Assembly: GCA_947172415.1 (NCBI GenBank)
Contig: OX359202.1
Span: forward strand, 3,446,001-3,510,000
DNA from: Chondrosia reniformis
Lineage: Eukaryota; Porifera; Demospongiae; Chondrillida; Chondrillidae
DNA: 64,000 bases
Reading direction: 5' to 3'
The notes under the pieces are model-generated. The model was not told where the DNA came from. It saw only the letters and a list, made by a program, of their open reading frames with translations, and made no database searches. The translations under genes and the position numbers were made by a program. Positions within the stretch are counted from its first letter, which is position 1. Each line of letters starts with the position of its first letter. Positions 24,396 to 42,600 of this stretch are shown here, in pieces.

Positions 24396-24940
24396 TTAGT
24401 AGTTGTATGTACTACTTCTATGTACTAGTTGTAGGTACCAGTTGCATGTACTAAGTGTATGTACTATTTAAATGTACTAGTTATATGTATATGTACTAGT
24501 TATATGTACTAGTTGTATATACTAGTTGAATGTACTAGAACTAGTTATATTTACTAGTTGTAGGTACTAGTTGTATTTAGTAGTCGTACGTAGTAGTCGT
24601 ATATAATAATTTTATTTACTAGTTGTATGTACTAGTTGTAGGTACTAGTTATGTACCAGTTGTATGTACTAGTTGTATGTATATATTAGTTTTATGTAAT
24701 CGTTCTATGTACTTGTTGTATGTATTAGTTTCTAGTTGTATGAAGTGGCTGTATGCACTAGTTGTATGTACTAGTTGTATGTTCCACTTTTATGTACTAG
24801 TTGTGTGTAGTGGTTTTATGTACTCATTCTATGTACTAGTTGTAAGTACTAGTTTCTAGTTGAATGTACTAGTTGTATGTAGTAGTTGTGTGTACTAGTT
24901 GTATGAACTACTTTTATGTGCTAATTGTGTGTTCTAGTAC
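24396..24940 (-). repeat. 13-bp satellite, inverted block
   Basis: About 545 bp in which the unit reads TGTATGTACTAGT on the + strand, opposite to both neighbours. The left junction is a near-palindrome centred at 24395-24396. The right junction is the palindrome GTTCTAGTACAAGAAC, centred near 24940. The open frame at 24623-24859 (MYVLVV..TSCMY-type sequence) is just translated satellite. Confidence 0.92.
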
Positions 24941-34165: not shown

Positions 34166-35603
34166 ATAGGGCTATGACTATAGGGTATATTATTGGATAT
34201 ACTTAGAAAAATATGGGATATATATGGCAAAACAATGGGATATATATGGCAAAAACAATGGGATATATTGGGCTAAGACAATGGGATATAATGGGAAAAA
34301 AATATTATATATATTTTGTGGTATATTGGTTAAAAAGTGTTGGAAATAATTGGAAAAAGCTTTGGGATATACTGGTCCATTGGATATATTAAATAAAAAA
34401 TAAGTAATATATTAGGCGGGATGTACTATAGGATGTATTTGTCAAAAGCTATGGGATATATTTGACAAAACTAAGGGATATATTGGGTAAAACTATGGGA
34501 TATATAAAGGGATATAATTGCATTAATTTTAAATAACTGGATATATTAAGCAAAAAATAAGGGATATTTTGGGCAAAATTATGGGATACATTGGCAAAAA
34601 TTATGGGATATATTTGCAAAACTATGGGATATATTCAGAAAAACTATGGGACTTATTGGGATAAAACTATGGATTATATTGGGCTAAGACTATAGGTTAT
34701 ATTATGGAATATTTTCTAAAATTATGGGATATATTTGAAAAATATGGGATATATTTGGCAAAAACTATGGGATATATTGTGCTAACACTATAAATTATTT
34801 TGTTGGATATATTCGGCCAAAGCTATGGGATATAGTTGGCAAAAATTATGGGATATATTACGGGATATATTTGTTAAAAATTGTTGAATATATATGGAAA
34901 TACTATGGGATATACTGTTCCAATAGATATATTAAGTAAAAACTAAGGGACATATTAGGCAAAATTATGGCATATAAAGGGCAAACATTATGGGATATAG
35001 TTTGGGATATATTGGTCAAAAGCCATGGGATATATTTGACAAAAATTAAGGGGTATATTGGGTGAAACTATGGGATATATTATTGGATATAATTGGCAAT
35101 ATTTTAAATAAATGAATATATTAATCAAAAATGAGGGATATATTAGGCAAAAGTATGGGATATATTTGGCAAAAATTATGGGATATATTTACAAAAACTA
35201 TGGGATATTTTGGGAAAACTATGGGATATATTGGGCAAAAACTATGGGATATTTTGGGCTAAGATTATAGGTAATATTATGGGATATATTTGGCAAGGTT
35301 TATAGGATATAGTTGAAAAAATATGGAAATTATATTGATAATACTATGGGATATATTGGACTAAGACTATAGGTTATTTTATGGGATATATTCGACAAAA
35401 ACTATGGGATATATTGGGACAAAGTTATGGGATATATTGGTTAATAATTGTTGGATATATTTGGCAAGAGTATGGGATATACTGGTCCATTAAATATATT
35501 AAGCAAAAACTAAGGGATACATTAGGCAAAATTATAGGATATACGATGGCATATATTTTGGGATATAATTAGCAATATTTCTAAATAATTGGGTATATTA
35601 AGC
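34166..35603 (+). repeat. Second minisatellite, ~23-bp GGGATATATTGGGCAAAAAC type
   Basis: 1.4 kb of AT-rich tandem repeats with approximate unit ACTATGGGATATATTGGGCA followed by AAA, unit length varying about 20-26 bp. It shares no units with the 13-bp satellite. A higher-order structure is visible: GATATACTGGTCCATT and its variants followed by an AAGCAAAAACTAAGGGA-like block occur at about 34366, 34910 and 35475, about 545-565 bp apart. It sits exactly where the flanking 13-bp satellite changes orientation. The 63-codon frame at 35381-35572 is translated repeat, not a gene. Confidence 0.93.
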
Positions 35604-36916
35604 AACTAGGTAAGTACAAGTTGTAGGTACTACCTGTTTGAACAATTTGTATGTACTAATTACATGTCCTATTTGTATGTACTAATTGTATACACTAATT
35701 ATTTGTTCTAGTTGTATGTACTAATTGTATGTACTATGTGTATATACTATTTGTATGTACTAGTAGTAGCTATAGTTTTAAGTTGTGTGTACTAGTTGTA
35801 TCCACTAGTTGTAGGTGCTAACTGTATACACTAGTTGTATGTATTAGTCTTATGTACTAGTTTGTATGTACAAGTTGCATGCAGTAGTTGTATGTACTAG
35901 TTGTGTATACTAGATTTAAGAACTAGAACTAGTTATATTTGTTAGTTGTAGGTACTGGTTATATTTCCTTGTTGTAGGTTCAAATTGTATGTTCAAGTTG
36001 TGTGCACTAGTTGTTGTTTCTAGTTATATGTACTATATGGACTAGTTGTGTGTACTAGGTGAATGTACTAGTTGTATGTACTAGTTGTATGTACTAGTTG
36101 TGTGTACTATAGATGAATTTACTAGATGTGTAGTTTGTACCAGTTCTATGTATTATATACTTGCATGTGCTAGTTTTATGTTCTAGTTATATGTACTATA
36201 TACTTGCATGTACTAGTTTTATGTTCTAGTTATATGTACATACTAGTTATATTTATTAGTTTTAGTTAATAGTTGTATGTACTAGTTTTATGTTCTAGTT
36301 GTATGCACTAGTAACTAGTTGTGTTTACTAGTTCTATGTACTAGTTTTATGTACTAGCAACTAGTTGTATATACTAGTTCTATGTACTAGTTCTATGTAC
36401 TAGTTTTATGTACTAGTTGTATGTAGAAGTTGTATGTACTAGTTATATGTACTAGTAACTATCTGTATGTACTAGTTGTAAGCACTAGTTGTATGTACTA
36501 GTTGTATGTAGTTTATATATACTAGTTGTGTGTACTAGTATTATGTATTAGGTGTATGTCCTAGTAACTAGTTGTATGTACTAGTTGTATGTACTAGTTC
36601 AATGTACTAGTTCTATGTACTTCTTTAATGTACTAGTTGTATGTAGAAGTGGTATGAACTAGTTGTGTGTAATGTTTGTATGTACTAGTTATATTTACTG
36701 GTTTTAGTGACTAGTTTTATGTACTAGTTGTATGTACAAGTTGTAGTACTAGTGTTATGTACTATATAGTGGTATGTACTAGTTTTATGTACTAGTTCTA
36801 TGTACTAGTTGCTAGTTGAATGTAGTAGTTTTATGTTCTCATTCTATGAACTAGTTCTATATAATATTTGTAGTTCTGGTTGTATGAACTAGTTGTATTT
36901 ACTAGTTGTATGTATA
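35604..36916 (-). repeat. 13-bp satellite, reverse orientation
   Basis: Units read TGTATGTACTAGT on the + strand. Contains the first occurrence of the higher-order marker GCTATAGTTTTAAGTTGTGT (about 35769). Ends in TATGTATA (36909-36916), duplicated at 39691-39698 after the R2-like element. Confidence 0.93.
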
Positions 36917-37038
36917 GTCGTGGGAATTGGAGGCTGTGGTTCCGAGCTGACAAGAGGATGGGTATTGTCCAGTTCAACCCCCCGACGGAGCAGGGTGCTT
37001 AGCCCTTCATGTGGCATCCTGTGGCTAAATCAGCCTCC
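36917..37038 (+). ncRNA. HDV-like self-cleaving ribozyme at the 5' end of the R2-like element
   Basis: Hand fold in the order of an HDV ribozyme: P1 GTCGTGGG (36917-36924) with CCCCCGAC (36979-36986), one mismatch. P2 GGAGGCTG (36929-36936) with CAGCCTCC (37031-37038), perfect. A P3-region hairpin GAGCT.ACAA (36944-36953) with TTGT..AGTTC (36965-36975). P4 CAGGGTGC (36991-36998) with GCATCCTG (37014-37021), one G-U. J4/2 contains CTAA (37025-37028), fitting the catalytic C in the CNRA strand. The first base of P1 is the first base of the element, where R2 ribozymes cleave. P1.1 could not be placed and P3 is longer than usual, so this needs confirmation. Confidence 0.55.
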
Positions 37039-37235
37039 CTGCCAGTATGGGCTAACCCCCCGTCTGGCAGTTTCACTGGGTTACGTTGCGCCATGAGAAT
37101 GACAATTTTCAAGACAGGCTGTGGCCTAGGTGCACCAGTGGAGAAGAAAACCCTGGGTCAACCAGAATAGGCGATTCCACTGGTGCCTCACAGGTAGATG
37201 TACCTGAATGTAATAACCCTTCTTCGGTCCCCGTG

Positions 37236-39421
37236 ATGGGCCAACCAGCCCTATGGACCGAGGAAATGGTTAGGGCACTAATTGATTGCTTTGAGCGATC
37301 TGAACCCAAAAGAGGTGGCTATCAGAAGCATTTAGAGCGGGAATGTCTGAGCAAATACCCACATTTGCCTCAGACCGGTCGAACCCTTGCCTTCCAAGCC
37401 AAAAGGAGCTTGGTAGGGGACGGAGTACTGCAAGTAACTGGTAGCCGAGATTTAGATTTGGTTAATGATGCACCGCAAGGTGCCTCTAGAAGGAGAAGGA
37501 TCCAAGGGGTGATCTGGAACCTTCAGAGGGATAATATCCTCATGGAGCTCTACCGAGAAAGTAAGCCCATGGAAAAGGGGTATGCCGAGCGGTTGTACCA
37601 GGCTTGGAATGCTGCAATGCCAGACCATAAAACCACAAAGGTAGCGCTAACTACAAGACTTAGTAGAATCCGCAGAGGTCAAGGTCTCGACTCTTCCAAG
37701 GAGACTCCTTATCGCCACTCCTCTTTTGTCTGGCCATAGCTCCCATATCCCAAGTTCTTAACAGAACCAAGGGATATGCCCTCTGGCATAATGGGGAAAG
37801 GAACACCATGTCACACTTGTTGTACATGGATGACCTTAAGATATATGCTGGAGGGCCTGATAAACTCAGGGAAGCCATGGAATGTGTGGAGAAAACCTCA
37901 AATGCCATTGGCATGAGGTTTGGAGTGAGAAAGTGTGGAACAGCTCACATGCAAAAGGGGAAAGTTCTGGCTGGCCCAGACAACCCTGAACGCAGTGAAG
38001 AATCCATAAGGAGCCTTGAAAAAGGTACTACTTATAAGTACCTAGGGCTAGAACAACTGTTTGAGGTAGATGACAGCAAGGTCAAAGCTTGCTTGATCAA
38101 CGAATTGAGGAGGAGACTCCACAAGGTGTGGGGCTCTCACCTCAATGGTAAGAATGCTGCAGAAGCCTCTAACATGTTGTGTGCCTCTCTAATGAGATAC
38201 TCTTACCCAGTTTTGAAGTGGACTCAAAGTGAGCTTCCAAAACTGGACCGAATGGTGAGAAAGATCATGAGAAAGTACCAGTGTCATCACTATAACTCTG
38301 CCATTGAAAGAGTGAATTTGCCTCGCTCTCAAGGTGGTAGAGGGCTCTGTAGTTTTTCTTTGGATCACGACAGGGCTGTTGTGAATCTGGCAAGATACCT
38401 CCATACTGCCAATGATCCACTCATAGCTGTGGTGGTTAAACACCAAAAGTGGCTGGAGTGCTCAAAGCAGAGGAGGACTGTCTTGAAAGAAGCCAGATTG
38501 ATACTGAGAAGCCACGGAATAGAACTAGAACCGGAAATGTGGCTGAAGACAGATCCCTCACAAAATAGTGTAAGAGAATGGAGGAGAGTGGCACGTGAGC
38601 TCCGGGAGGCTCAGACTGAAAGGTTAAAAAGTAACCTAGCCGAAAAGTCTCACCAGGGCTCATACCACAGACAAGTCACAAATAGGGAGTCTTATGTGTG
38701 GCTTTCTGAGGGGAGACTCAGACCTCAAACTGAGGCTCTGATTCTCGCAGCCCAAGATGATGTGCTGCACACTAGGTGGTACCAAAATAGGATTCTGAAG
38801 AATTCTAGCCTCCTAATGTGCAGAGAATGTGGCAAGGCTATGGAAACGGTCAAACACATACTAAACATGTGTGAGCCCAAGGGATTTTCTCTCTACAAAG
38901 AGAGACATGACCGGGCAATACTGATAGTGTTGTGGAGACTGTTGAAAGAATATGGATTCAGGCAGGAAGAGCCCTGGTACAAACTAGAAGCAAAACCAGT
39001 CTATGAGAATAGGTCTGTCAAAATCTTGTGGGATCCTAGTATCCCTACAGATGATGAAATGACAGAAAGAAGGCCAGACTTAGTGGTTGAGGATCGGCTA
39101 AGTAAGTCCATCTTCATTATTGAGATGTCAGTTCCTACTGACAGCAATATTAATGGAAGATGGCAAGAGAAGTTCCAAAAGTACCAGAAGCTGGCAGCTG
39201 ATATGAGGAAACAATTTAGGGGCTACCGAATTAAGGTAGTCCCGATGATAATTGGTTCTTTGGGGACTTTGGATACACTCCTGGAAGACCTTAGGGGAAT
39301 TCCAAAGCTGTCAAAAAGTGCAGTAGAAGTGATGAGAGCCATGCAGAGAACTGTTCTCTGTTCGGCTGTGAGGATATTGAGGCGACATCTATCTGTTGAG
39401 GGATTGGGGCCTGGACGATAA
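37236..39421 (+). pseudogene. R2-like polyprotein: Myb-like repeats, partial RT, CCHC, RLE
   Basis: First in-frame ATG is 37236 (an open stretch begins at 37086). Two tandem Myb/SANT-like units follow, each with W...L...Y or F, then GY...L and a P-containing turn (LWTEEMVRALIDCFE... and IWNLQRDNILMELYRE...). At about 37670 the frame changes and RT motif B appears (LFQGDSLSPLLF, 37691), then motif C YMDDLKIYA (37823) and KYLG. The 537-codon frame 37808-39421 continues with a CCHC knuckle (C338, C341, H350, C355) and a PD-(D/E)XK-like endonuclease (RRPDLVV at 421-427, FIIEMSVP with E439, EKFQKYQKL), ending at TAA 39419-39421. RT motifs 0-A are missing, so it cannot reverse-transcribe. The endonuclease half is open throughout. 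Confidence 0.82.
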
Positions 39422-39690
39422 GTAGTCCTGTCCCAGTCCTTGCCTGTCGACCTCTGGAAAGCAGTGGTGGATTGGTGTATGGAGGTACTCCCTCCTATTA
39501 TGACGGTCAACTTTGGCCCGACGTGCACCCGTCTGCTGCTGTCGGAAGGAGGAAAAGCCGAGGCTTCTGGCTAAAACCCAAAGAAAGGAAAACATAACTG
39601 ACTGAGGGTTGTCCAAGCCAGATACTCCTTGCCTTAGTACACTAAGGCAAGAAGTAACAAGGTTCTCCGTTAAGGCTTTTGTTTTTCAAG

Positions 39691-42600
39691 TATGTATATC
39701 CTATTTTTTGTACTATTGTATGTACTAATTGTATGTACTATTTGTATGGACTATTTGTATGGACTAGTACTAGCTATAGTTTTAAGTTGTGTGTACTATA
39801 TAGTTGTATCTACTAGTTGTAGGTGCTAATTGTATATACTAGTTGTATGTACTAGTTGCATGCAGTAGTTGTATGTACTAGTTGTGTGTACTAGATTTAA
39901 GAACTAGAACTAGTTATGTTTGCTAGTTGTAGGCACTGGTTATATTTCCTTGTTGTAGGTTCTAGTTGTGTGTACTATTTGTACGTACTAGTTGTAGTGA
40001 CTGATTGTATGTACTAGTTGTATGTACTTGTTGTATGTACTAGTTCTATGTACTAGTTCTATGTACTGGTTACTAGTTGAATGTACTAGTTTTATGTTCT
40101 CATTCTATGAACTAGTTCTATATAACATTTGCAGTTGTAGTTTTATGAACTAGTTGTATGTACTAGTTGTATGTATATCCTAGTTGTTTGTACTAATTGT
40201 ATGTACTATGTGCATGTACTATTTGTATGTACTAGTACAAGCTATAGTTTTAAGTTGTGTGTACTAGTTGTATCTACTAGTTGTAGGTGCTAATTGTATA
40301 CACTAGTTGTATGTATTTGTCTTATGGACTAGTTGTATGTACTAGTTGCATGCAGTAGTTGTATGTACTAGTTGTGTGTACCAGATTTAAGTACTAGAAC
40401 TAGTTATGTTTGCTTAGTGTTGGTACTGGTTATATTTCCTTGTTGTAGGTTCAAGTTGTATGTTCCAGTTGTATGCACTAGTGGTAAGTAACAGTAACTT
40501 GTTGTGTGCACTAGTTGTTGTTTGTAGTTATATGGACTGGGGGTATGTACCAGTTGTATGTACTAGTTACTAGTTGTATATACTAGATATATTTTCTAGT
40601 TATCTGTACCTTTTGTGTGTATTAAGAATATGTACTAGTTATTGGACAAGTTGTATGTACTAGGTGAATGTACTAGTTGTATGAACTAGTTGTGTGTACT
40701 ATAGATGTATGTATATACTAGATGTGTACTAGTTTTAGGTACTAGTGGTTTGGACCTGTTGTATGTATTATATACTTGCGTGTACTAGTTTTATGTTCTA
40801 GTTATATGTATTAGTTGTATGTACTATGTTTATATACTAGTTTAATGTTCTAGTTGTATGAAATATTTGTATGTACTAGTTGTATACACTACTAGTTGTG
40901 TGTACTTGTTGTGTGTACTAGTTGTACTAATACTTGTTATATTTACTAGTCGCAGGTAATAGTTGTGTATACTAGTTGTATGTAGTACTACTAGTTATAT
41001 TAACTAGCTTTATTTATTAGTTGTATGTATTACTTGTAATTAATAGTTGTATGTACTAGTTGTACTAGATGTATTTACTAGTTATATGTACTCGTTACTA
41101 GCTGTATGTGCCAGTTGTATGTTCTAGTTGTATGTACTAGTACTAGTTTTACTTACTAGTCATAGGTACTAGTTGAATGTACAAGTTGTATGTACTGGTA
41201 CTAGGTATATTTAATATTTGTAGGTACTATATGTATGTGCCAGTTGTATGTACTAGATTTATGTTCTAGTTGTATGGAGTAGTTGTTTATAATAGCTGTA
41301 TCTACTATTTGAATGTACTAGTTGTATGTATTAGTTGTATGTACTAGTGTTTCTGTACTCGTTACTAGTTGTTTGTACGAATTGTATGTACTACATGTAT
41401 GAACTAATAACTAGTTGTATGTACTGACTGAATGTACTAGTTGTATGTATATATTACTTGTATGTACTAGCTGTGTACTAGTTGCATATACTAGTTTTAT
41501 TTGGTAGTTTTATGTTCACTTTCTATGAACTAGCTGTATGTACTAGTGTCTTGTTGTTCGTACTAGTTGTATTCATGGGTTTTAAAATCTCTTTCTATGT
41601 ACTAGTTGCATGTACTAGTTTCTAGGTAGTTGTGTGCACTGGTTGCGTGTACTAGTTGCAAATATTACTTGTATGTCCGAGTTGTATATACTAAGTGTAT
41701 GTACTATTTATATATACTAGTTATATGTGTATGTACTAGTTATATGTACTAGTTATATGCAGTACTTGTGTGTACTAGTTGTATGTACTAATTTTATGTA
41801 CTAGGTGGATATACTAGTTGTACGTATATATTACTTGTATTTACTAGCTGTGTACTAGTTGTATATACTAGTTTTATGTGGTAGTTTTATGTTCACGTTC
41901 TATGAACTAGCTGTATATACTAGTGTCTTGTTTTTCGTACTAGTTGTATGTATAAGTTTTATGTCCTCTTCTATGTACTAGTTGCATGTACTAGTTTCTA
42001 ATTGTATGTACTAGTTGTATACACTGGTTGTGTGTACTAGTTGTTTATAATACTTTTATGTCCTAGTTGTATGTACTAGATGTATGTACTATTTATATAT
42101 ACTATTTATATGTGTGTGTACTAGTTATATGTTCTCGTTGTGTCTAATTGTTGTATGTACTAACTGATTTTGTCTATTTGTACTTACTGGTTGTTCGTAC
42201 GAGTAAATAGTTGAATGTTCTAGTTGTATGTACTAATTGTATGTATTAGTTGTATGTACTAGTTGTATGTTCTAATTGTTTGTATTTGTTGCATGTACTA
42301 GTTCTATGTACGAGTTATATGTACTAGTTGTAGGTACTAGTTTCATGTATTAGTTGTATGTACTACTTCAATGCTGTAGTTGTAGGTTCTAGTACTAGTT
42401 ATACTAGGTACTAGGTAGATCCTAGTTATATGTACTGCATACAAATTGTATGTACTAGTTTTATATACTAGATGTGTGTAATTGTTGTATGTGCTAGTTT
42501 TTATGTACTACTTGTATGTCCTATATAGTTGCATATAGTAGTTGCATGTATTACTTGTATACACTATTTTTATGTACTAGTTGTATGTACTATTTGTAAG

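What the first reader, a model, noticed from the sequence alone, without database searches (positions are those of the whole stretch)
36917..37038. HDV-like ribozyme exactly at the 5' end of an R2-like element in a satellite
A nested P1/P2/P4 fold with a perfect 8-bp P2, an 8-bp P4 and a CTAA strand in J4/2 begins at the very first base after the TATGTATA duplication. R2 elements are known to start with HDV-like ribozymes that cut their own 5' end out of a co-transcript. Here the host transcript would be satellite RNA rather than 28S rRNA. P1 has one mismatch and P1.1 is not placed, so it could be inactive.
Basis: partly seen in the sequence, partly recalled or inferred. Interest (0 to 1): 0.75.

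Follow-up and report, generated by a model that had tools for sequence, protein, structure and literature searches.

The report
Self-cutting RNA heading a sponge retrotransposon
A jumping gene in a sponge genome appears to begin, at its very first base, with a small RNA that folds like the hepatitis delta self-cutting RNA and probably trims the element's own transcript out of whatever is transcribed around it; this is a known trick of related elements, here in an unusual shape and in an element with no fixed landing site.

Summary
P1, P2, P4 and J4/2 (GGCTAAA) start at base 36917, directly after the TATGTATA duplication, and P1.1 can be placed. An HDV-topology score at 36917 is the best in 152,730 bases scanned; 0 of 456,020 shuffles reach it. 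The element is an internally deleted copy of a 4.36-kb R2-like retrotransposon with 189 heads in the genome, which fits the kidney sponge Chondrosia reniformis. In 45 copies, nt 1-124 differ far less (1.95%) than nt 125-200 (6.59%), the change coming just past the ribozyme's 3' end. This supports a functional 5' ribozyme.

Against it: no significant covariation among copies, an internal P1 defect, an extra hairpin in P3/L3, no Rfam HDV match, and no cleavage assay. The element is not satellite-specific: target duplications differ and 7 of 20 upstream flanks are poor in satellite motif. A satellite co-transcript is untested.

Side result: the genome holds a second HDV-like ribozyme family of canonical anatomy, 418 places.

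The parts
36909..36916 (+). 5' copy of the 8-bp target-site duplication TATGTATA
36917..39690 (+). R2-group-like non-LTR retrotransposon copy with an internal deletion: 1588 nt of the 4363-nt full copy are missing between 37688 and 37689
   Evidence: alignment to L009 and others; 12 copies with both ends are 4353-4363 nt
36917..37038 (+). HDV-like ribozyme (predicted); cleavage expected before 36917
36917..36924 (+). P1 5' strand GTCGTGGG
   Evidence: pairs with 36979-36986
36979..36986 (+). P1 3' strand CCCCCGAC (T5.C66 mismatch, or T5 bulged using the extra C)
36929..36936 (+). P2 5' strand GGAGGCTG
37031..37038 (+). P2 3' strand CAGCCTCC
36941..36946 (+). L3-like UCCGAG: U and G five apart as in the HDV L3 trans GU pair; CC (36942-36943) pairs with 36987-36988 as P1.1
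   Evidence: U23/G28 pair from PMC3386971 (start of abstract)
36987..36988 (+). P1.1 3' side GG, directly after P1'
36937..36939 (+). possible 3-bp P3 5' strand TGG, with TCA 36974-36976 (one G.U, one unpaired A before P1')
   Evidence: inference; weak
36947..36972 (+). extra hairpin (called P3.1 here) inserted between L3 and P1'; 7 pairs with one bulge
   Evidence: mean pair probability 0.80
36991..36998 (+). P4 5' strand CAGGGTGC
   Evidence: pair probability 0.997
37014..37021 (+). P4 3' strand GCATCCTG
37022..37030 (+). J4/2 TGGCTAAAT; candidate catalytic C at 37025; identical in the 23 rows of A3
37056..37739 (+). N-terminal part of the open reading frame (frame open from element nt 140; first in-frame ATG at nt 350 in L009), cut short by the deletion
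37808..39421 (+). C-terminal half of the reverse transcriptase (YMDD), CCHC knuckle and PD-x-E endonuclease-like motif
   Evidence: motifs located in L009
39422..39690 (+). 3' UTR ending ...TTTTTCAAG
39691..39698 (+). 3' copy of TATGTATA

Best explanation
The first 122 nt of this sponge retrotransposon are an HDV-like self-cleaving ribozyme. When a copy is transcribed from an outside promoter, P1, P2, P1.1 and P4 fold into the nested double pseudoknot. The C of J4/2 (37025) acts in cleaving the bond just before G 36917, and the released RNA starts exactly at the element's first base. That RNA is then translated without an upstream AUG and copied by target-primed reverse transcription, so most full-length insertions begin at the same base next to a target duplication of their own. 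Shown: the fold, its position, its improbability by chance, its constraint between source lineages, and the nearly constant 5' end. Inferred: cleavage, the outside promoter, non-AUG translation, and the place of P3 (3 bp, with an extra hairpin after L3).
For: Best score in 152,730 bases scanned and 0 of 456,020 shuffles. 33 of 47 heads score best at nt 1, and 21 of 47 have the full score. Of 20 copies fetched with both sides, 18 start at nt 1. Nt 1-124 versus 125-200 in 45 copies: 1.95% against 6.59% substitutions; 40 higher downstream, 1 lower, 4 tied; variants shared by 4 or more copies at 4 of 124 sites against 14 of 76, Fisher p 5e-4; private changes per nt differ less (0.355 against 0.50). 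With one copy per flank (41 copies): 1.82% against 6.30%, 37 higher, 0 lower, 4 tied, 4 of 124 against 11 of 76, p 0.005. The shared stem variants (18T, 67T, 70T) keep G.U pairs. J4/2 is invariant in 23 of 23 rows. R2 and R4-clade elements are known to carry such ribozymes at or near the 5' end (PMC3774820, abstract, sections 12, 15, 16, 18, 19 and half of 17 read). Intact reading frames (1317 aa) exist in other copies, so the lineage was active recently.
Against: No significant covariation (2 doubly changed cells; reached by 57 of 500 shuffles for pairs and 59 of 500 for cells; all four changed bases lie in CpG). Between P2 and P1' there are 42 nt, against 14 in the canonical second family of this genome, and P3 is not contiguous with P1'. 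The P1 defect is present in 21 of the 23 rows of A3 (L047 lacks T5; L043 has G66, a possible U.G pair); PMC3774820 section 12 reports HDV-like ribozymes with P1 mismatches that are inactive or weak. 14 of 47 heads score zero at nt 1, as decayed copies would. No Rfam HDV match at E <= 10. The nested fold prefers other pairing for the P2 strands. No cleavage assay or transcript.
Confidence: 0.78

Rival explanations
1. A degenerate ribozyme: the lineage once had a working HDV-like ribozyme, but the P1 defect and the hairpin inserted in P3/L3 leave it inactive or very slow; the conserved RNA now serves another step such as protein binding or translation.
For: The P1 defect is near-universal (21 of 23 rows). 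PMC3774820 section 12 describes a horseshoe crab R2 with a P1 mismatch and no cleavage. P3 is not canonical.
Against: J4/2, P1.1 and P2 are kept across source lineages, as expected while cleavage is selected. Section 16 of the same paper says about a quarter of R2 ribozymes have 1-2 P1 mismatches at the top of the stem.
Confidence: 0.12
2. The constant 5' end is a transcription start of an internal promoter, and the conserved 124 nt are promoter or structured 5' UTR for RNP formation; the HDV likeness is a coincidence.
For: A fixed 5' end and a conserved 5' region are also expected from a promoter or an RNP-binding RNA. No Rfam HDV match; no significant covariation.
Against: 0 of 456,020 shuffles reach the HDV-topology score at nt 1; the conserved stretch ends within a few nt of the P2 3' strand.
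Confidence: 0.08
3. Chance complementarity in a GC-rich head.
For: The scoring rule was written after seeing the sequence; nested folding energy is ordinary (z -0.21).
Against: controls; exact coincidence with the element's first base; constraint.
Confidence: 0.02

Closest known systems
HDV-like ribozymes at the 5' end of R2 (28S rDNA) and R4-clade (R4, Dong) retrotransposons
   Same: Position at the 5' end; P1, P1.1, P2, P4; catalytic C in J4/2; element protein related to R2; no AUG near the start of the frame (for R2 this last point is recalled)
   Different: No 28S target seen and no single target; extra hairpin between L3 and P1'; whole ribozyme inside the element, as reported for R4, Dong and Drosophila R2 but unlike most R2, where P1 uses 28S sequence (PMC3774820)
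[quoted passage not shown]
   Same: Sponge host, R2-like reverse transcriptase, variable flanks
   Different: No C2H2 pattern found here and a Myb fold not demonstrated; that paper does not appear to analyse 5' ribozymes (the word occurs twice, both in its reference list as far as shown), and Chondrosia is not in its main text
HDV antigenomic ribozyme (sequence recalled, not fetched)
   Same: J4/2 GGCUAAA against GGCUAAG; L3 U-C-C-N-N-G spacing; GG directly after P1'
   Different: P3 not adjacent to P1'; 26-nt hairpin inserted; P1 defect
Second ribozyme family of the same genome (L029-L036 and others)
   Same: HDV class, same genome
   Different: Canonical core CCUCCUCGUGG, conserved sequence upstream rather than downstream, mostly on chromosome arms, no linked reverse transcriptase seen in the loci read

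Membership tests
HDV-like ribozymes | P1 starting at the cleavage site and crossing with P2 (pseudoknot) | tested here: met
   P1 7 of 8 pairs, P2 8 of 8
HDV-like ribozymes | P1.1 formed by L3 C residues with G directly after P1' | tested here: met
   CC 36942-36943 with GG 36987-36988; paired in 97.5% of cells
HDV-like ribozymes | P3 of about 3 bp continuing P2, its 3' strand next to P1' | tested here: inconclusive
   only a weak 3-bp option (TGG with TCA), and a hairpin is inserted
HDV-like ribozymes | Catalytic C in J4/2 followed by N-A | tested here: met
   GGCTAAA, invariant in 23 of 23 rows
HDV-like ribozymes | Recognised by Rfam HDV models | tested here: not met
   no HDV hit at E <= 10; the models' recall for R2-type ribozymes was not tested
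HDV-like ribozymes | Compensatory changes in stems | tested here: inconclusive
   2 doubly changed P1 cells, not significant; copies too similar
HDV-like ribozymes | Self-cleavage 5' of P1 | not testable with these tools
   needs RNA
R2 group of non-LTR retrotransposons | Reverse transcriptase related to R2 | tested here: met
   phmmer to R2 protein 9nl2, E 2.6e-22, best stretch residues 526-852; Pfam RVT_1 E 1.5e-30
R2 group of non-LTR retrotransposons | C-terminal CCHC plus PD-(D/E)XK endonuclease, no N-terminal APE | tested here: inconclusive
   CCHC at 1118 and PD-x-E motif at 1202 by pattern; weak alignment to R2 CCHC (E 0.24); no Pfam family, so no APE detected, in the N-terminal 487 aa; AlphaFold model unusable (pLDDT 34.7)
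R2 clade in the strict sense | 28S rDNA target | tested here: not met
   20 flanks read vary, mostly satellite
R2 clade in the strict sense | N-terminal zinc finger(s) | tested here: not met
   no C2H2 pattern in the 1317 aa (pattern only)
R2 clade in the strict sense | Myb domain | tested here: inconclusive
   no Pfam hit; model pLDDT 39

The most novel reading that the evidence does not exclude
A non-site-specific sponge R2-group element keeps a working 5' HDV-like ribozyme of a new shape (a hairpin inserted between L3 and P1'). This would mean that the ribozyme was not invented for release from 28S rRNA. It would define RNA 5' ends and start translation wherever the element lands, and may be older than rDNA targeting.
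Probability: 0.35. Interest if true: 0.68.

Novelty: new variant of a known kind. Interest (0 to 1): 0.52.

Why it matters
R2 ribozymes are usually explained by the need to escape from a 28S rRNA co-transcript. An R2-group-like element that lands in many places and still starts exactly with an HDV-like fold separates the ribozyme from rDNA targeting. It makes testable whether the ribozyme came first, and whether its main task is 5'-end definition or translation. The extra P3/L3 hairpin would also widen what HDV folds tolerate. Sponges, where R2-homologous elements were recently reported as non-site-specific (PMC13188248), are a good place to ask.

Tried and rejected
Rejected: (1) site-specific insertion into the satellite: the target duplications seen are 8-16 bp and differ. 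(2) 'Giant reading frames' of 1931-5044 aa: in the one such place that I hold (L017) the stretch is open in all three frames, read as N, not a real frame. (3) Two of the several other reverse-transcriptase families as relatives for covariation: their N-termini carry a region that I read by eye as an APE-type endonuclease, so they are not of the R2 group; the other families were not examined. (4) Covariation inside the family: too little divergence. (5) AlphaFold of the C-terminal 397 aa (pLDDT 34.7) and of 200 N-terminal residues (39.3): both unusable, so no fold search was made. (6) Reading the second HDV-like family as coding at the ribozyme: its length changes are often not multiples of three, and changes look mostly non-synonymous in the only open frame (by eye).

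Not done: a tree of the reverse transcriptase (no reference set at hand); other sponges (none held; G000 has no relatives here); the viral contigs and genome-contig scans were not used.

Full report
WHERE IT IS. The host is inferred to be the kidney sponge Chondrosia reniformis: its published assembly spans 117.37 Mb in 14 chromosomes, with longest scaffold 10.41 Mb and a mitochondrial genome of 17.45 kb (PMC12181767, abstract and passages read). Contig C1 here is 10,409,357 bases. This rests on sizes only.

THE OBSERVATION. Numbering from G 36917 as nt 1: P1 1-8 with 63-70 (position 5 mismatched or bulged); J1/2 9-12; P2 13-20 with 115-122; P4 75-82 with 98-105; J4/2 106-114, TGGCTAAAT. P1.1 can be placed as C26-G72 and C27-G71, directly after P1' as in HDV (recalled). 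The bases U25-C26-C27-G28-A29-G30 keep the U...G spacing of five that forms the trans GU pair in HDV loop III (U23/G28 in the antigenomic ribozyme; PMC3386971, start of abstract only). Between this L3-like segment and P1' sits an extra hairpin (31-37 with 49-56). P3 is reduced to a doubtful 3-bp helix, U21-A60, G22-C59, G23.U58. This is the main departure from the canonical fold.

IS IT MORE THAN CHANCE. I wrote an HDV-topology score: hydrogen bonds of P1 with at most one mismatch, perfect P2 of 5-8 and P4 of 4-8, with P1.1 and a J4/2 C[TGA]A required. At nt 1 it gives 62. In 152,730 bases (both strands of the window and of L029, L034, L037 and L039, cut in chunks that overlap by 160) the top value is 62 at 36917; the next place that does not overlap it scores 54. 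With the start fixed at nt 1, 0 of 456,020 dinucleotide shuffles of the first 135 nt reach 62; the maximum is 58, and 24,004 give some match. The rule was made after the sequence was seen and does not test P3. The canonical family found later scores 52-54. Of 47 heads examined, 33 score best with the start at nt 1, 21 have the full 62, and 14 score zero at nt 1. Against: the nested minimum-energy fold is ordinary (z -0.21) and gives P2 a mean pair probability of 0.18 (P1 0.61, P4 0.997). Such programs cannot draw pseudoknots. No Rfam family of the HDV kind matches at E <= 10.

THE ELEMENT. The window copy, 36917-39690, lacks 1588 nt found in other copies, so its reading frame is broken. The 12 copies with both ends are 4353-4363 nt, with a frame of 1317 aa open in several, for example L009, L010, L013, L015 and L019. 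The protein matches R2 proteins of solved structures (best E 2.6e-22, best stretch residues 526-852) and Pfam RVT_1 (E 1.5e-30). It has YMDD where the two R2 proteins aligned have FADD or YADD, a CCHC knuckle at 1118, a PD-x-E motif at 1202, and no C2H2 pattern. The endonuclease fold could not be confirmed. The first in-frame ATG lies at element nt 350, while the frame is open from nt 140 (L009), so no upstream AUG is available. The R2 group fits; the clade is not settled, and strict R2 membership fails on target and zinc fingers.

COPIES AND ENDS. The 26-nt head occurs at 189 places with up to 3 mismatches (control 0); 91 of the 100 listed are exact. Of 93 of the 100 listed heads (7 on C7 left out), 88 lie at 0.25-0.65 of their chromosome's length. 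Of 20 copies fetched with flanks, 18 begin at nt 1, one at 2 and one at 3. Of 20 windows placed where older copies should begin, 13 gave a head, 10 of them starting at nt 1. Target duplications are clear in 4 of the 12 copies with both ends (9-16 bp), doubtful in 2, not found in 6; by eye also in the window copy (8 bp) and in L024/L028, which share one flank and so are one insertion. Upstream flanks (480 bp) are rich in the 13-bp satellite motif (over 50 per kb) in 13 of 20 and poorer in 7 (0-23 per kb), though L015 and L026 of those 7 look satellite-like next to the junction; non-satellite control DNA has 0.5-1.6. The element therefore lies mostly, but not only, in pericentromere-like satellite and has no single target.

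SELECTION ON THE HEAD. Of 53 loci tested, 45 gave a usable head (7 no match, 1 too short). In these, nt 1-124 differ from the window copy at 108 of 5551 letters (1.95%) and nt 125-200 at 224 of 3397 (6.59%). Without CpG sites the figures are 1.65% and 6.25%. In 40 copies the downstream rate is higher, in 1 lower, 4 tied. Variants shared by at least 4 copies fall at 4 of 124 sites upstream (18, 67, 70, 90) and 14 of 76 downstream (Fisher p 0.0005), while private changes are 0.355 and 0.50 per nt (shared against private, p 0.019). Some copies share a flank and are not independent; with one copy per flank (41) the figures are 1.82% and 6.30%, 37 higher, 0 lower, 4 tied, and 4 of 124 against 11 of 76 sites (p 0.005). 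Dead copies decay at fairly similar rates in both parts, but source lineages have hardly changed the first 124 nt. Three of the four shared variants are C-to-T changes that keep G.U pairs (67 and 70 lie in CpG and may recur), and the fourth is in loop 4. Smaller earlier counts on 34 heads gave weaker results (second allele in 3 or more: 4 of 124 against 12 of 124 sites, p 0.067; minor allele in 6 or more: 1 of 124 against 12 of 216, p 0.036). Within nt 1-124 of those 34 heads, stem positions vary more often than loop positions (23 of 53 against 13 of 71), as expected for decay of GC- and CpG-rich dead copies but no sign of stem protection after insertion. Covariation is not shown: on 20 distinct heads there are two doubly changed P1 cells (3-68 in L054, 4-67 in L058), reached by 57 of 500 shuffles for pairs and 59 of 500 for cells, and all four bases are CpG transitions.

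HOW IT PROBABLY WORKS. The likeliest mechanism is that of R2 and R4-clade ribozymes, for which cleavage at the element's 5' junction or upstream in 28S is documented (PMC3774820, abstract, sections 12, 15, 16, 18, 19 and the first half of 17 read): a longer transcript folds, cuts before G1, and the released RNA is translated and reverse transcribed. That paper notes that elements cut at their own 5' end have variable junctions. Here most junctions read are exact at G1; L016 carries two extra 19-nt heads and L091 one of about 21 nt. What transcript carries the element is unknown; satellite RNA is one option among several. The P1 defect could slow cleavage: section 12 of that paper describes inactive or weak mismatched P1 stems, and section 16 says about one fourth of R2 ribozymes have 1-2 P1 mismatches at the top of the stem.

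WHAT IS KNOWN. Sponge R2-homologous, non-site-specific elements were reported in 2026 (PMC13188248, passages read). The word ribozyme occurs twice there, both in the reference list as far as shown, and Chondrosia not at all in the main text. Three searches for HDV-like or self-cleaving ribozymes with sponge terms listed 3, 2 and 0 papers, none with a title on such ribozymes in sponges; of these only PMC13188248 was opened. Subscription journals are mostly missing from this library. I therefore call it a new variant of a known kind.

A SECOND FAMILY. A search of the genome with the Rfam HDV model gave 81 sub-threshold matches, best E 0.49; 4 of 14 control genomes also gave sub-threshold matches. 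Reading 30 of the 81 showed 29 of one family with the core ACCUCCUCGUGG (variant CCUCCCCGCGG in two, CCUCCUCGCGG in one), matching the R2 core CCUCCUCGUGG quoted in PMC5035012 (passages read), and one different candidate (L078). A 23-mer of the family occurs at 418 places with up to 2 mismatches (control 0). Of 92 listed places (of 100 listed, 8 on C7 left out; the listing covers C1-C7 only), 12 lie at 0.25-0.65 of chromosome length, so it is mostly on the arms. On 27 sequences (of 30 read; L032, L035 and L078 left out), 97.8% of cells pair, and 15 cells are changed on both sides against 6.0 in shuffles (0 of 500); P4 pair 46-71 is C-G in 15 and U-A in 11, and P1 pair 4-35 is A-U in one (L064). 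The measures that count pairs are not exceptional (3 pairs, 51 of 500; 9 further types, 500 of 500), and P4 pair 47-70 is unpaired in 13, so the covariation is suggestive, perhaps one main event. About 1.1 kb upstream is conserved; in 6 of 7 comparisons with L030 the match ends at or near the ribozyme's 3' end, in one it runs about 130 nt further, and L081 and L082 match beyond both limits. This is the reverse of the R2 layout. What this unit is remains unknown.

Noticed in passing
L029-L036, L061-L077, L079-L082 (e.g. L030:1503-1574); 418 places genome-wide: A second HDV-like ribozyme family of canonical anatomy (core ACCTCCTCGTGGT), with a suggestive compensatory change in P4 and one in P1, about 1.1 kb of conserved, seemingly noncoding sequence upstream and mostly divergent sequence downstream; mainly on chromosome arms. 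The nature of the unit is unknown.
   Followed up: partly
L078 / L083 (G000:C10:1258136-1258203, minus strand): Another HDV-like candidate, GGGGACATTGTCGACAACCTTCTCGTGGTGGCCCCGGG..., right after a (TG)n run and different from both families; no frame over 90 aa on that strand in the 3.35 kb read.
   Followed up: partly
L030 827-846 and 1479-1498: In the second family GGCCTCCGG...CAACTC upstream is complementary to GAGTTG...CCGGAGGCC just before the ribozyme, which would close a domain of about 670 nt.
   Followed up: no
L016 and L091, 5' flanks of the element: Extra tandem partial heads precede the full head: two of 19 nt (GTCGTGGGAATTGGAGGCC) in L016 and one of about 21 nt in L091; they cover the 5' strands of P1 and P2.
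   Followed up: partly
L017 (G000:C6:7716864-7726363): Elements stand head to tail, joined by TAAAAGTCGT; further along the stretch is open in all frames (read as N), which produces a false giant reading frame.
   Followed up: partly
L009 protein, residue 786: The reverse transcriptase has YMDD where the two R2 proteins aligned have FADD or YADD.
   Followed up: no
window 34207-35485 and 24400-24938: A second tandem repeat (unit about 22-23 bp, ATGGGATATATT...) lies inside the 13-bp satellite domain, and the 13-bp satellite is on the other strand at 24400-24938 (listing cut at 150 of 264 rows).
   Followed up: no
L084, L085, L093 (G000:C1 2.14-2.26 Mb): Three copies share the same flank next to the head, so they probably arose by duplication of the host segment, not by separate insertions; L024 and L028 likewise.
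   Followed up: no
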